Assembly: GCF_003590775.1 (NCBI RefSeq)
Contig: NZ_QYUM01000004.1
Location: 310,001-374,000, forward strand
DNA length: 64,000 bases
From: Sphingomonas cavernae
Lineage (GTDB): Bacteria > Pseudomonadota > Alphaproteobacteria > Sphingomonadales > Sphingomonadaceae
Reading direction: 5' to 3'
This document shows, in pieces, positions 29,065 to 33,669 of this stretch. A program made the translations under genes and the position numbers. The notes under the pieces were generated by a model. The model was not told where the DNA came from. It made no database searches and worked only from the letters and a program-made list of their open reading frames with translations. Position 1 is the first letter of the stretch. The number at the start of each line of letters is the position of its first letter.

Positions 29065-29688
29065 CTAACTCCCGGATTCATCGCCGAAGCGCGCCACGAC
29101 GGTGGCCTCTACGCCCGCCGCCTTCAAAGGCATAGAAAAACTGTTGGCGATGGCGCGGCGCGTGGCATCGCGCGCAAGTTTCATCGGCACCGCCTCGCGC
29201 GCCTGCCGCATCAGCTCGTCCTGGCCCGCCTTGCGGTTGGCGGCGTCGAGCACCTTTTCGGAGTCGGTCAGCGCCAGCAGGATTCCGCCGCCATCATACT
29301 CCTGGATCGCGCGCATATCCACTTGCGGCCCGGCAATCTCGATCGGCGGCAGCGTGACGGTGAGTGTCCTGGAAACCTCGTCCCAGGCGACGTCACGCTG
29401 TTGCAGCTTCGAGAGGTCGACCTCGTAACGGACCATCCCGGGCATGATGAGCGTCTTTTTGGCGGTCAGCCCGAAGCGCCCCTGCTCAGAGGTGACGACC
29501 GCGACAAAGCGCGCCGCGAACGCCGACAGACGGTTCTGCTCGCGCAGACCCTGCAGGCTCGACGCGGCGATCGTCTCGACGTTCCCCTGCCAGCGCTTTT
29601 CCCAGGTGCGTTGCATCAAAAGCAGCGCGCCCAACCCCAGCGCGATCGCGAAGGCAATCGCGATCAGCCACTTGCCCAATGGTTTCAT
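29065..29688 (-). CDS. DUF4230 domain-containing membrane-anchored protein
   Basis: 207-residue protein with one N-terminal membrane helix (LIAIAFAIALGLGALLLMQ) and a periplasmic domain (VVTSEQGRFGLTAKKTLIMP, VRYEVDLSKLQQRDVAWDE), which fits DUF4230. Function unknown. Its start overlaps the end of the MBL-hydrolase gene by four bases, and it precedes nadA closely. Confidence 0.82.
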   Translation of the reverse strand: MKPLGKWLIAIAFAIALGLGALLLMQRTWEKRWQGNVETIAASSLQGLREQNRLSAFAARFVAVVTSEQGRFGLTAKKTLIMPGMVRYEVDLSKLQQRDVAWDEVSRTLTVTLPPIEIAGPQVDMRAIQEYDGGGILLALTDSEKVLDAANRKAGQDELMRQAREAVPMKLARDATRRAIANSFSMPLKAAGVEATVVARFGDESGS

Positions 29689-30545
29689 GTCTCGATCAGC
29701 TCCCAGCTATCCTGGTGTTCGCGGACCACACCGCGGTCGCGCAGGTCGATCAGATGCGCAAGCACCGAGCGCCCCGCAGCGCCGGTGAGGCGCGGATCGA
29801 GCCCCTTGTACATGTGCGAGACCATGACCGGGATTTCCCCTGTACCCCGCCCGACCAGCCGCAATATCTGCCCCTCGCGCTGCTTACGGTGGCCGAGCAA
29901 CCCGCGCGCGAAACGCTGCGGCCGCTCGATCGGATCGCCGTGCGCCGGATAATAAATAACGTCGTCGCGGCCCATCAACAGCTCGAGGCTGGCCATATAG
30001 GCGGCCATGTCGCCATCGGGGGGCGAAACCACGCTGGTCGACCACGCCATCACGTGATCGCCCGTGAACAGCGCCTTTTCCTCGAGAAGCGCGAGGCAGA
30101 GATGATTGGAGGTGTGCCCAGGCGTCGCAACCGCCTGGAGCGTCCAGCGCGGACCCGAAACGCTCTCGCCGTCGCCGAGCACATGATCGGGCGCATAGGC
30201 GCGGTCGAATGCTTCATCGGCACGCGGGCCGCTGTCATCAAGCACCAGGGGCGCACAGCCGACGATCCGGGCGGCCGTAGCCTCCTTGAGCGGTCGCGTG
30301 GCGGGGCTGTGGTCGCGGTGGGTGTGCGTGCACGAAATATATGCGATCTCCTCGCCAGCGGTCGCACGCAGAATCGCGTCGATATGGTGTTGATCATCGG
30401 GACCGGGGTCGATCACCACAACGCTTCCATGACCCACGATATAGGTCTGGGTTCCGCTATAGGTATAAGGCGAGGGATTGGGCGCGAGCACGCGGCGCAC
30501 CAAAGGGGTCAGCACCATCGCCTCACCGGTCGGGAAATCGTTCAT
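29685..30545 (-). CDS. MBL-fold metallo-hydrolase (LACTB2-like)
   Basis: 286-residue metallo-beta-lactamase-fold hydrolase. The metal site is THTHRDHSPA with downstream PGHTSNHL, FTGDHVM and YYPAHGDPI. A C-terminal winged-helix-like segment (LLGHRKQREGQILRLVGRG, LIDLRDRGVV) resembles the human LACTB2 and bacterial RNase-like hydrolase group. The start at 30545 is a choice; another ATG lies nine bases earlier. It heads the DUF4230-nadA-nadC-RNase T2 series. Confidence 0.87.
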   Translation of the reverse strand: MNDFPTGEAMVLTPLVRRVLAPNPSPYTYSGTQTYIVGHGSVVVIDPGPDDQHHIDAILRATAGEEIAYISCTHTHRDHSPATRPLKEATAARIVGCAPLVLDDSGPRADEAFDRAYAPDHVLGDGESVSGPRWTLQAVATPGHTSNHLCLALLEEKALFTGDHVMAWSTSVVSPPDGDMAAYMASLELLMGRDDVIYYPAHGDPIERPQRFARGLLGHRKQREGQILRLVGRGTGEIPVMVSHMYKGLDPRLTGAAGRSVLAHLIDLRDRGVVREHQDSWELIET

Positions 30546-30633
30546 CCCGCACATGTGGCACGTCCCTGCCCAGAAACAAGATCGGGCGGAACAGCCTGTA
30601 AATGTTCCACCCGATCAAATTGTCCCGCAGGAT

Positions 30634-31062
30634 TTATTTGTTGGTGGCGCGATCCGCCTTGAGCCGCGCGATTTCGGCGTCCAGCGTGGCAAGCGCGCTT
30701 GAGCGATGCTCATCGCTCAGCCCCTTTTCCGCCGCCAGTTCGCCACGCGCCTTTTCCAGCGCTGCGACGGCGTCGGCGTCAGCCTTGCCGCAGATCATGA
30801 TGCGCGTGCGCTGCTTCTTGCCGTCGGTCTCGGTTTCGACGTCGGTGCCGACCTCCTGCCCTTCAGCCTTGCACTTTGCCATCGCCGCATTGAGGTGCGC
30901 ATCGTCGACCGCCACGCCGCCTTCCCCGCGCTTGATGATCGTCACGCGTTTTTCGACTTTGGGCTCGGTGTCGTGTCCCTCATGGGCCAGCGCCGCTATC
31001 GGAAGCCCTGCCAGCGCCAATGCTGTCAACGCGACTGTCAAATAGTCTTTTTTGTTCGTCAT
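30634..31062 (-). CDS. Secreted paralogue of the M56 sensor tail
   Basis: 142-residue protein with signal peptide ending ALAHEG. The rest aligns by eye with the last ~80 residues of the M56 peptidase encoded just upstream: AKCKAEGQEV...RIMICGK (Cys64, Cys91) against GKCDGKSEIV...VRVCVAK (Cys441, Cys466), then ARGELAAEKGLSDEHRSSAL against ARAGIASSQGLSADQRRDAL, and LDAEIARLKAD against IDGEIEKLRRA. GGAGGAG precedes the ATG. It starts 22 bases after the peptidase gene and is probably cotranscribed. Function unknown. Confidence 0.8.
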   Translation of the reverse strand: MTNKKDYLTVALTALALAGLPIAALAHEGHDTEPKVEKRVTIIKRGEGGVAVDDAHLNAAMAKCKAEGQEVGTDVETETDGKKQRTRIMICGKADADAVAALEKARGELAAEKGLSDEHRSSALATLDAEIARLKADRATNK

Positions 31063-31084
31063 AGCCGATTCTCCTCCCGCGTAA

Positions 31085-32638
31085 TTACTGGTCGTTCGCG
31101 CGGCGCAGCTTTTCGATTTCCCCGTCGATCGAGGCGAGCGCATCTCTGCGCTGATCGGCGGAAAGCCCCTGTGATGAAGCGATGCCTGCGCGTGCCGACG
31201 AAAGCGCCTGCACTTGCACCTTGTGATCGATCTTCGCGACACAGACGCGGACGATCTGCTTTCTGACCCCGTCATGACTCTCGGTGCGCGACTCCACAAT
31301 TTCACTCTTGCCATCGCACTTGCCGGGAACGACACGAACCATCGACATGTGGCGGCGGGCGACGATCTGCGCTGCGCGTGCGGCCGCCATCGCTTCGCGG
31401 CGAACCTCCTCCGCTTCGACCAGCGCCTCGCGGCGTGCCTCCGCCGCCTCACGCAACGCTTCGCGACGCGCTTCGTCTGCTTCGGCCAATGCCTCACTCC
31501 GAGCCTCCGCGGCCTCGCGTTGCGCGGCTTCAAGCTCTTCATGCCAATCCCCCAAATTCAGGGGTGCAATCGGTGCCGGCGGAGCGGGAGCCATGGGCGG
31601 CGCGATGGCCAGCGGCGGCGCTGGCGCATCGGGGATTGCCGCCGGTGCGGCGGGTGGAATGGGCGTGATCGACGGCTGCAGCAACGCTGTCTTCTCGACC
31701 ACTGCGCTACGCACTGTGCTTTCGACCTCACGCGTTGTCTCGGCCGCGATCCCGCCCGACGCGGTGAGCGCAAGGCCGCCGACGACGATGGTCACGGCGA
31801 GCGCACGGCCCGCCAAGATACGCTCATGCGCGTCGCGCATCATCAGCAGGCGCGTCTTGATCTGGTTGCGCGGGTTGAGCGCGCACGCCGCGACGGGGGT
31901 GCGGACGCAAGCCGATTTCACGAGCGCCGAGCCATAGGAATGACGCTCGTCGGGTGTCGCGTCGGCGAGCACGATCGCGTCGCAGGCGAGTTCCTGATCG
32001 GCGCGGAACGCACGCCAGGCACGGTATGCGATGGGATTGAACCAATGCAGCGACAGCATCGCCAGCGCGAAATAATTGAAGGAAAGGTCGCCGCGCCGGT
32101 GGTGCGCCCATTCATGCGTCAGCGCGAGACGCAGTTCATCCGCGCTGTAGCGATAGCGATAGTCATAAGGCAGCACGATCCGCGGCACGAACACACCCGT
32201 CGCAAAAGGACCGTCGACCGCCTGGCTCGCGCAGACCTCGATTCCGCCGCGATCGAATTCGGGAAGCTGCGTCGCCCGCGCGAGCGCCGTTCCCACGAAA
32301 CGGCGATAGGCAATCAGGTGCCATCCGAAATAGCTGATCGCGCCGGTCAGCCAGATCGCGAGCAGCAGCGTGCCCCAGGCAATGCCGCTTTCAGGCGTGA
32401 CGGGCGCGGCCTCGACCACCTCGATCATCGAGAAGTCGACGATCACCGGCAATTGCGTGATCGGCGCGGGACCGACCGATTCGGGCAGCGGCGGCAGCAC
32501 CATGCGCAGCGCGGGCAGCAGCCAGAGCAGATAGGCAGTGCGCGCGCCGAGCATGCGCGCGACGTGACCGCGAACGAGAAGGACGAGGACCATGAGGATG
32601 GTCGTCGCCACGAACGTTTCCACGATCCAGGCCGTCAT
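31085..32638 (-). CDS. BlaR1/MecR1-type M56 membrane peptidase
   Basis: 517-residue membrane protein. Hydrophobic helices lie at about 5-22, 32-50, 86-110 and 278-296. The zinc motif HEWAHH (175-180) and ELACDA (216-221) identify an M56 peptidase. After a Pro/Ala-rich linker (320-360) comes a charged coiled coil of REALxEAxEA repeats (365-425) and a C-terminal module with Cys441 and Cys466. There is no penicillin-binding domain, so the signal is probably not a beta-lactam. It overlaps the blaI-like gene by four bases. Confidence 0.92.
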   Translation of the reverse strand: MTAWIVETFVATTILMVLVLLVRGHVARMLGARTAYLLWLLPALRMVLPPLPESVGPAPITQLPVIVDFSMIEVVEAAPVTPESGIAWGTLLLAIWLTGAISYFGWHLIAYRRFVGTALARATQLPEFDRGGIEVCASQAVDGPFATGVFVPRIVLPYDYRYRYSADELRLALTHEWAHHRRGDLSFNYFALAMLSLHWFNPIAYRAWRAFRADQELACDAIVLADATPDERHSYGSALVKSACVRTPVAACALNPRNQIKTRLLMMRDAHERILAGRALAVTIVVGGLALTASGGIAAETTREVESTVRSAVVEKTALLQPSITPIPPAAPAAIPDAPAPPLAIAPPMAPAPPAPIAPLNLGDWHEELEAAQREAAEARSEALAEADEARREALREAAEARREALVEAEEVRREAMAAARAAQIVARRHMSMVRVVPGKCDGKSEIVESRTESHDGVRKQIVRVCVAKIDHKVQVQALSSARAGIASSQGLSADQRRDALASIDGEIEKLRRANDQ

Positions 32639-33003
32639 GACTTGAGCGCCTTCAGAAGGGCTTCGATCTCGGCGATGTCCTCATCGCTGAGTTCGTCGCG
32701 ATCGGCGAGATGCGCCACCAGCGGCGAGACCCGCCCGCCGAACAGCCGGTCGACGAGTCGGCGCGACTCAACCGCGATATAATCCTCGCGCGCGACGGCA
32801 GGCCGATAGAGATAGCGGCGGCCATCCTCCTCGTAGGAAAGCACATTCTTTGCGAGCAGCCGCGACAACATGGTCTTGACCGTACGGTCGCTCCAGCCGC
32901 GCGCGGCACCGATACGCTCATGCACCTCGGTGGCGGTGAGTGGAGCTTCATCCCACAGCACATCCATCACCACCTGTTCGGCTTCGCTGATACGCTCGCT
33001 CAT
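32635..33003 (-). CDS. BlaI/MecI/CopY-family repressor
   Basis: 122-residue winged-helix repressor (ISEAEQVVMDVLWDEAPLTA, WSDRTVKTMLSRLLAKNVLS, DGRRYLYRPAVAREDYI) with a C-terminal dimerisation helix. In BlaI/MecI systems the partner peptidase triggers cleavage of the repressor. Two operator-like palindromes lie 20-60 bases upstream, so it should repress its own operon with the M56 peptidase. Confidence 0.93.
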   Translation of the reverse strand: MSERISEAEQVVMDVLWDEAPLTATEVHERIGAARGWSDRTVKTMLSRLLAKNVLSYEEDGRRYLYRPAVAREDYIAVESRRLVDRLFGGRVSPLVAHLADRDELSDEDIAEIEALLKALKS

Positions 33004-33023
33004 CGGCGCCTGCTCCCTTGTCC

Positions 33024-33039
33024 GATTACAACCGTAGTC
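33024..33039. promoter_or_regulatory. BlaI-type operator 1
   Basis: GATTACAACCGTAGTC resembles the BlaI/MecI operator core (TACA-N2-TGTA) with one base off symmetry. It lies 21 bases before the repressor start, 23 bases from operator 2 centre to centre, i.e. about two helix turns. Confidence 0.75.
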
Positions 33040-33046
33040 GATTTTC

Positions 33047-33062
33047 GATTACAAGTGTAGTC
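33047..33062. promoter_or_regulatory. BlaI-type operator 2
   Basis: GATTACAAGTGTAGTC carries the full TACA-AG-TGTA core with outer GATTACA / TGTAGTC arms, as in MecI/BlaI operators. Together with operator 1 it would bind two repressor dimers across the promoter of the blaI-like operon. The divergent gene at 33097 could be regulated too. Confidence 0.82.
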
Positions 33063-33096
33063 ATCAATTGGCTGAACGGCAAATGAACGCGCATTC

Positions 33097-33669
33097 ATGC
33101 CGACGCGCTTTGACAAGCCGGGTCGACGTGCAATGAATGCGAAAATGACCGAAAGCGACAGTTCCCGCCGGCGCATCGTGGTCAATGATCGCATGCAGCA
33201 GGGGTATAGCTATCAACTGAGCGCGGGCGCCGGCAGGAATTTCGATCCCGATTTTTGCCCAGAGCTGACCCCGAAGGAAATGCTCGCGCTCGGCGTATTC
33301 GGCGGAAAGTATATGACCGATTGCCGCGACGAATTTCCTGAAAGCTGGTTCCGCGACGCCAAGCTGTCACCCCAGGGCCACGATCCTGCGCTCAATTATT
33401 TCGGAGTCAGCGCGAGCACGGCTTTGTCTGTATGGCGCGCCAAGGGCTGGATCCATCCGGACGACCCCCGTGGCTGGTTTCAATGGTATTGTCGCTATTA
33501 TATGGGGCGAAGGCTGCCCGACGAAGACCGGCGTCAGATCGGTCGATGGAAAGCTTTTGCCCGTCACACCGCGCAGGTGCGGCGGCATTGCGAGCCCGGC
33601 GATCCCTTCTGTCGCCCCAGGCAGCGCCAAGCCTTGCTGCAGTGGGCCTATGACAGCCGGCGCATCTGA
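33097..33669 (+). CDS. Conserved hypothetical protein rich in Trp/Tyr/Arg
   Basis: 190-residue soluble protein of unknown function. Conserved-looking aromatic clusters include GVFGGKYMTDCRDEFPESWF, VWRAKGWIHPDDPRGWFQWY, and RYYMGRRLPDEDRRQIGRW. The C-terminus is QALLQWAYDSRR. It has no signal peptide or membrane segment. The start could be 33097, 33133 or 33145; none has a strong ribosome-binding site. It is divergent from the BlaI-like operon, across the two operators, so coregulation is possible. I do not recognise a named family. Confidence 0.7.
   Translation: MPTRFDKPGRRAMNAKMTESDSSRRRIVVNDRMQQGYSYQLSAGAGRNFDPDFCPELTPKEMLALGVFGGKYMTDCRDEFPESWFRDAKLSPQGHDPALNYFGVSASTALSVWRAKGWIHPDDPRGWFQWYCRYYMGRRLPDEDRRQIGRWKAFARHTAQVRRHCEPGDPFCRPRQRQALLQWAYDSRRI

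What the first reader, a model, noticed from the sequence alone, without database searches (positions are those of the whole stretch)
30634..33003. BlaI/M56 operon with a secreted copy of the sensor tail
The M56 peptidase has no penicillin-binding domain; it ends in a coiled coil and a two-Cys module (Cys441, Cys466). The next gene encodes a signal-peptide protein whose mature part aligns with the same module (Cys64, Cys91; shared ARGxxAxxxGLSxxxRxxAL pattern). A free paralogue of the sensor domain could act as co-sensor, decoy or ligand carrier. I know no characterised BlaR-type system with this layout.
Basis: partly seen in the sequence, partly recalled or inferred. Interest (0 to 1): 0.72.

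Follow-up and report, generated by a model that had tools for sequence, protein, structure and literature searches.

The report
BlaI/M56 operon with secreted sensor-tail relative
A bacterial gene switch related to the one that turns on penicillin resistance, but lacking its penicillin-binding sensor, carries beside it a small secreted protein built from the same domain as the sensor's outer tail, and some relatives carry this domain on its own.

Summary
On the minus strand lie blaI (33003-32635), an M56 protease gene (32638-31085) and a 142-residue protein with a signal peptide (31062-30634). The M56 tail and the free protein share a two-Cys hairpin plus helical-hairpin module: blastp E=4e-9, profile-profile E=1.2e-17, same predicted secondary structure. 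The module is a common M56 tail in this family (178 of 298 genomes have the module, 214 of 298 an M56) and rare in a sample of the class. I confirmed free copies in 14 of the 298 genomes, 5 genera: 12 beside BlaI/M56, 2 without them (lower bound). The window's free protein does not look like a recent copy of its neighbour's tail: it groups with other free proteins (80/80) and is better conserved than the tail between two congeners (82% against 39%). BlaI-type operators precede blaI; no second site stands out in this genome. Best reading: an autoregulated operon whose one detected output is a periplasmic protein recognising what the sensor tail recognises. Ligand and feedback are inferred. A strict co-sensor is weakened because each half occurs without the other. 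New variant of a known kind.

The parts
33047..33062 (-). BlaI-type operator, distal box (GACTACACTTGTAATC; core TACAnnTGTA)
   Evidence: Exact match; 8/8 core match before the blaI start
33024..33039 (-). BlaI-type operator, proximal box (GACTACGGTTGTAATC)
   Evidence: Exact match; 7/8 core match
32635..33003 (-). blaI: repressor of the BlaI/MecI/CopY family, 122 aa
   Evidence: Penicillinase_R 125.4 bits, cut-off 22.6
31085..32638 (-). M56 metallopeptidase, 517 aa, overlapping blaI by 4 bases; HExxH at 175-179
   Evidence: Peptidase_M56 169.5 bits, cut-off 31; model with confident catalytic domain
31358..31552 (-). M56 coiled-coil stalk (residues 363-427), presumed periplasmic
   Evidence: One long helix in the model
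31088..31351 (-). M56-attached two-Cys module (residues 430-517; Cys441, Cys466)
   Evidence: Strands 447-455 and 458-467, helices 472-487 and 494-516; homology to the free protein
30634..31062 (-). Free secreted module protein, 142 aa; signal peptide about residues 1-26 (ALA|HEGHD, read by eye, no predictor run)
   Evidence: free relatives in 13 other genomes
30637..30906 (-). Module part of the free protein (residues 53-142; Cys64, Cys91)
   Evidence: Strands 69-79 and 82-92, helices 97-110 and 117-141
30572..30616 (-). Terminator-like 14-bp hairpin with U-rich tail after the free gene, before the next gene
   Evidence: Fold of 96 nt: -43.5 kcal/mol, shuffled mean -27.2, z -4.9, 1 of 200 shuffles as low. 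Not listed by the simple scan, which allows loops of 3-8 (this one has 9)

Best explanation
This is a BlaI/M56 regulated-proteolysis switch with a family-specific periplasmic sensor tail, whose operon also makes a secreted protein built from the same module. Most likely working: (1) without stimulus BlaI sits on two boxes before blaI and silences the operon (boxes shown, binding inferred); (2) a periplasmic signal acts on the M56 tail (stalk plus probably disulphide-stabilised module), the protease is activated and BlaI is cut (inferred from BlaR1/MecR1); (3) the operon is derepressed and the free module protein is exported (signal peptide read from sequence); (4) the free protein binds the same ligand or partner as the attached module, doing the protective work itself and, by removing the ligand or occupying its site, shutting the sensor off. 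Step 4 is inference. Nothing here identifies the ligand; an envelope or cell-wall stress signal is my guess.
For: Operon order and overlap, terminator-like hairpin. Homology of attached and free module. A BlaI-type box before blaI in 16 of 16 loci examined (perfect core in 14, 7/8 in 2). In this genome the exact sites are the two at this operon; other hits (two at 2 mismatches; one at 1 mismatch of a looser pattern) do not exceed the controls of 5. Free mature protein dN/dS 0.085 between G000 and G168, against 0.10 for M56 residues 1-300, 0.07 for BlaI and 0.64 for the attached module. A free protein occurs where BlaI/M56 is missing (G074, G271) and where the M56 lacks the module (G077, G197, G238), so it probably does something on its own. 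In G215 a perfect box lies between a class A beta-lactamase gene and a divergent gene read as an exported hydrolase, a lead that such systems can control exported defences.
Against: No ligand, expression or binding data. Only one congener pair shows the strong contrast in conservation; over 31 within-genus pairs the attached module evolves 1.0 to 12.4 times faster (dN) than the catalytic part, with no clear difference between genomes with and without a free copy. dS values near or above 1 are partly saturated. G145 and G273 keep BlaI, M56 and operator with no module found, so the module is not needed for every such switch. The G271 and G074 free copies are truncated M56 genes and G074 has lost the Cys hairpin, so they may be decaying. 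Across 25 further genomes, 6 perfect boxes away from blaI do not exceed the 21 hits of the control pattern. Of 30 class A beta-lactamase loci fetched, 29 hold no box of 7/8 or better; in the other (L111) two weak boxes lie 769 bases before and beyond the match.
Confidence: 0.42

Rival explanations
1. Co-sensor: the free module docks on the M56 stalk or attached module and is needed for signalling, so the receptor is split between two chains.
For: Same operon, presumably same compartment, shared module. In genus g77 the five M56 proteins examined keep a coiled-coil stalk but lack the module, and 3 of the 5 genomes carry a free copy near it.
Against: G145 and G273 of the same genus keep BlaI, M56 and operator with neither form found. 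G074 and G271 keep a free form without BlaI/M56. Free copies were confirmed in only 14 of 298 genomes, M56 is in 214.
Confidence: 0.2
2. Pure decoy or feedback inhibitor: the free module only competes for the ligand or for the dimer interface of the tail and resets the switch, without protective work.
For: Homology plus placement behind the regulators; no second target stands out in this genome.
Against: Free copies without a BlaI/M56 neighbour in G074 and G271 have no such switch to reset, unless they are decaying; G074 has lost the Cys hairpin.
Confidence: 0.18
3. Neutral by-product: the free gene is a leftover fragment or duplicate with little function.
For: The g74 free copies are truncated M56 genes. 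Free genes were confirmed in only 14 of 298 genomes. G127 has only a 48-residue signal-peptide-like ORF at the place.
Against: Free mature protein dN/dS 0.085 between G000 and G168; open frames and the Cys pair kept in the g1, g50 and g77 rows aligned.
Confidence: 0.12

Closest known systems
BlaI/BlaR1 and MecI/MecR1 (review PMC7593790, passages seen)
   Same: Repressor of the BlaI family next to a membrane M56 protease with an outer C-terminal domain; palindromic boxes before the operon.
   Different: The outer domain is not a class-D-beta-lactamase-like penicillin binder but a stalk with a two-Cys module; the third gene is a secreted relative of that module, not a beta-lactamase or PBP2a.
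CopY family copper repressors (family features recalled)
   Same: BlaI-like fold and TACAnnTGTA-type operator (the operator of CopY is recalled).
   Different: Below the CopY model cut-off (83.6 against 121.95 bits); this repressor has no cysteine, so not the Cys motif that I recall for CopY.
CpxP/CpxA and RseB/RseA periplasmic accessory pairs (recalled, not tested)
   Same: A small secreted protein made by the system that it may modulate; how the best explanation would work.
   Different: There the secreted protein is, as far as I recall, not a paralogue of the sensor's own tail; no sequence relation was tested.

Membership tests
BlaR1/MecR1 beta-lactam sensors | M56 peptidase domain with HExxH | tested here: met
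   Peptidase_M56 169.5 bits against cut-off 31; H175, E176, H179 invariant in 18 rows
BlaR1/MecR1 beta-lactam sensors | C-terminal penicillin-binding (class-D-like) sensor domain | tested here: not met
   No such Pfam match in the protein; its last 93 residues match no family at E<=1; BlaR1 model 92.8 bits against cut-off 400
BlaR1/MecR1 beta-lactam sensors | Adjacent BlaI-family repressor and operator-like boxes | tested here: met
BlaR1/MecR1 beta-lactam sensors | Induction by beta-lactams and cleavage of BlaI | not testable with these tools
   Needs experiment
BlaI/MecI/CopY repressors | Penicillinase_R winged-helix domain | tested here: met
   125.4 bits, cut-off 22.6
CopY equivalog | Score over the CopY_TcrY model cut-off | tested here: not met
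   83.6 against 121.95 bits
Two-Cys M56-tail module of this family (defined here) | C-x(~25)-C hairpin followed by two helices with AR and LD-EI-RL motifs | tested here: met
   Attached and free copy of the window both match; both were in the seed, so this is by construction in part

The most novel reading that the evidence does not exclude
Sensor domain and output of this switch are the same protein module: an old periplasmic binding protein that exists free (g1, g50, g77), was tied to the M56 protease as its sensor, and can be cut loose again (g74, where the last membrane helix became the signal peptide). The switch would sense its ligand with a tethered copy of its own effector and make more of the free form.
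Probability: 0.3. Interest if true: 0.72.

Novelty: new variant of a known kind. Interest (0 to 1): 0.52.

Why it matters
Here one sensor module is found attached, attached plus free, and free alone within one bacterial family, mostly at one conserved neighbourhood, which makes its role directly testable. If the free form is the output, the ligand of the sensor can be sought by pull-down with the soluble protein. The g74 case also shows how a receptor tail can become a secreted protein.

Tried and rejected
A fold match for the module: 1203 PDB matches at E<=10, none at E<=0.001; the top hits are Ras-like with TM about 0.2, and the model is weak (mean pLDDT 66, pTM 0.48), so no conclusion.

Relaxed selection on the attached module wherever a free copy exists: rejected as a general rule; dN ratios (module over catalytic part) overlap in genomes with and without a free copy. 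Only G000-G168 is extreme (12.4).

A beta-lactamase regulon across the family: 29 of 30 class A loci fetched (top-scoring, out of a longer cut list) carry no box of 7/8 or better, and the other has none near its start; one gene in G215 does.

Excess of second BlaI targets: 6 perfect boxes away from blaI in 25 genomes against 21 hits of the reversed control pattern. Four of the six lie within about 100 bases before, or at the start of, a gene that I read as exported; the two in G087 do not clearly; judged by eye, not tested.

A simple promoter scan found no sigma-70-like site in 30400-33400. Named relatives through genome contigs: the one scan returned five distant M56 genes of Clostridia and Bacteroidota, not used. 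The PDB sequence search and the phrogs and padloc libraries were not used. Papers: searches showed no title or abstract describing this layout; most subscription journals are not held. Two papers listed for BlaI matched only author names in their references.

Full report
Observation. The M56 protein has no penicillin-binding domain by Pfam and scores far below the BlaR1 model cut-off. Its tail and the free protein are homologous: E=4e-9 pairwise, 12.6 sd above shuffles, E=1.2e-17 by profiles. Models of both give two strands and two helices in the same order; mean pLDDT is 66 for the free protein (first 49 residues under 50) and 76 for M56.

Setting. On the minus strand downstream lie an MBL-fold gene (29685-30554), a DUF4230-like gene and nadA/nadC; about 2.3 kb upstream of blaI, behind other genes on both strands, are glutaredoxin- and DUF1476-like genes (names by comparison with the next record and by eye). 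The annotated record of Sphingomonas parapaucimobilis has grxD-BlaI-M56-MBL-DUF4230-nadA-nadC with no gene annotated between M56 and MBL, so the family is most likely Sphingomonadaceae. Of 29 loci examined, 26 encode a relative of the window's MBL protein; in 24 of these an M56 gene is present and in 2 (G074, G271) it is not. The 3 without MBL in the stretch held are G059, G131 and G046, so the g59 free genes do not share this neighbourhood as far as seen. The M56-MBL gap, with the MBL start estimated by script, is 566 bases in the window and 126 and 153 in the two congeners without a free gene. A terminator-like hairpin follows the free gene, though the simple scan does not list it.

Distribution. 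With a 20-row module profile 178 of 298 family genomes match at E<=0.001; M56 itself is found in 214 of 298. In 385 genomes drawn from the class 6 match: five of this family and one weak 29-residue stretch. I confirmed free copies in 14 genomes: G000, G168, G215 (g1); G050, G185, G228, G264 (g50); G059, G131 (g59); G077, G197, G238 (g77); G074, G271 (g74). The list was cut, so its weak rows were not inspected and 14 is a lower bound. G124, with two matches at E<=0.001, has both in one M56 frame; a third G215 match (22.5 bits, 40 residues) lies in a small exported-looking protein without the Cys hairpin and was not counted. In g1, g50 and g59 the free gene directly follows M56; in G077 it precedes blaI; in G238 it follows M56; G197 has two copies behind a gene read as a glycosyltransferase. 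G238's copy and one of G197's carry an extra C-terminal part. G021, G107 (g1) and G127 (g50) show no free copy. The five g77 M56 proteins examined lack the module but keep helical tails; G145 and G273 show no free copy either. The M56 modules of g59 are degenerate (26-27 bits).

Release of a tail in g74. The G271 free protein aligns from its first Met with the last membrane helix and tail of congeneric M56 proteins (54.6% over 216 residues, E=1e-63, low-complexity filter off): the helix now stands where a signal peptide would. G074 aligns likewise, more weakly, and has lost the Cys hairpin. Neither genome has the orthologous M56; each has only one weaker-scoring M56 of about 664 aa, and all five g74 genomes have one of this kind (orthology not tested). 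No BlaI relative was found in the stretches held; BlaI was not sought in the rest of these genomes. They have no match to the strict box pattern, and the free gene lies beside MBL and DUF4230 relatives.

History. A module tree of 38 rows puts the free proteins of g1, g50 and g77 together (80/80, with one long-branched M56 tail, G055, inside; g50+g77 97/89), leaves the g59 free copies unplaced, puts G271's copy with g74 tails (97/95) and G074's in a weak group with g74 and other tails. The label needs 5 changes on the tree and at least 2 by well-supported branches, against 12.0 for shuffled labels; with the g74 alignment this speaks for at least two origins. The window's free gene is thus probably not a fresh copy of its neighbour. 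Between G000 and G168 the mature free protein is 81.9% identical (dN/dS 0.085), M56 residues 1-300 91.3% (0.10), BlaI 91.8% (0.07), the attached module 39.1% (0.64). In the four g50 carriers the contrast is smaller: dN 0.06-0.32 for the last 90 residues of the free protein against 0.03-0.57 for the attached module; in g59 0.37 against 0.65.

Control. Each of 16 loci examined has a TACAnnTGTA-like box before blaI (14 perfect, 2 at 7/8). In the window genome nothing else stands out: other hits are at 1 or 2 mismatches and do not exceed the controls of 5. In 25 more genomes, 19 perfect sites lie at blaI and 6 elsewhere, fewer than the control's 21. Leads: G215 has 3 perfect sites, one before blaI, one between a class A beta-lactamase gene and a gene read as an exported hydrolase, one beside a gene read as an exported peptidase; in G059 one stands before a gene for a secreted-looking coiled-coil protein.

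Mechanism. Shown: homology, gene order, boxes as sequence, conservation pattern, occurrence of each half without the other. Inferred: export, repression, cleavage of BlaI by M56 (from BlaR1/MecR1; review passages), common ligand, feedback. I prefer the effector-with-feedback reading because the free protein is conserved in g1 and occurs without the switch in g74. I give co-sensor 0.2, decoy 0.18 and neutral by-product 0.12; the rest is unassigned.

Known or new. The kind (BlaI/M56 switch) is known; the sensor module and the free partner match no family in Pfam or NCBIfam, and the paper searches named above showed no description.

Noticed in passing
window 30970-30984 and loci L058, L059, L067: Presumed mature N-termini of several free proteins begin with His-rich stretches (HEGHD, HPHND, HPEHA, read by eye), which could bind metal; the g50 copies lack this.
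   Followed up: no
L162 883-1541 (G059): A perfect BlaI-type box lies about 70 bases before a gene for a secreted-looking protein made largely of EAREAA-type coiled coil, reminiscent of M56 stalks.
   Followed up: partly
L098 (G215): A perfect BlaI-type box lies between a class A beta-lactamase gene and a divergent gene read as an exported alpha/beta hydrolase.
   Followed up: partly
L074 (G127), between M56 and MBL: A 48-residue ORF with a signal-peptide-like start and SDNHGDK sits where carriers have the free gene; perhaps a remnant.
   Followed up: no
L067 2339-3259 and L068 843-1787: Free module proteins of g77 with an extra C-terminal part holding several Cys.
   Followed up: no
L181, L182, L183, L184, L185 (g74): A second, weaker-scoring M56 (open frames 637-671 aa) occurs in all five g74 genomes examined.
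   Followed up: no
L191 (NZ_CP155757.1): The BlaI/M56/nadA/leuC neighbourhood lies on a 138-kb replicon called a plasmid in Sphingomonas parapaucimobilis; my guess is an assembly matter or a chromid.
   Followed up: no
L197 1327-1689 (G215): A small exported-looking protein matches only the helical part of the module profile (22.5 bits).
   Followed up: partly
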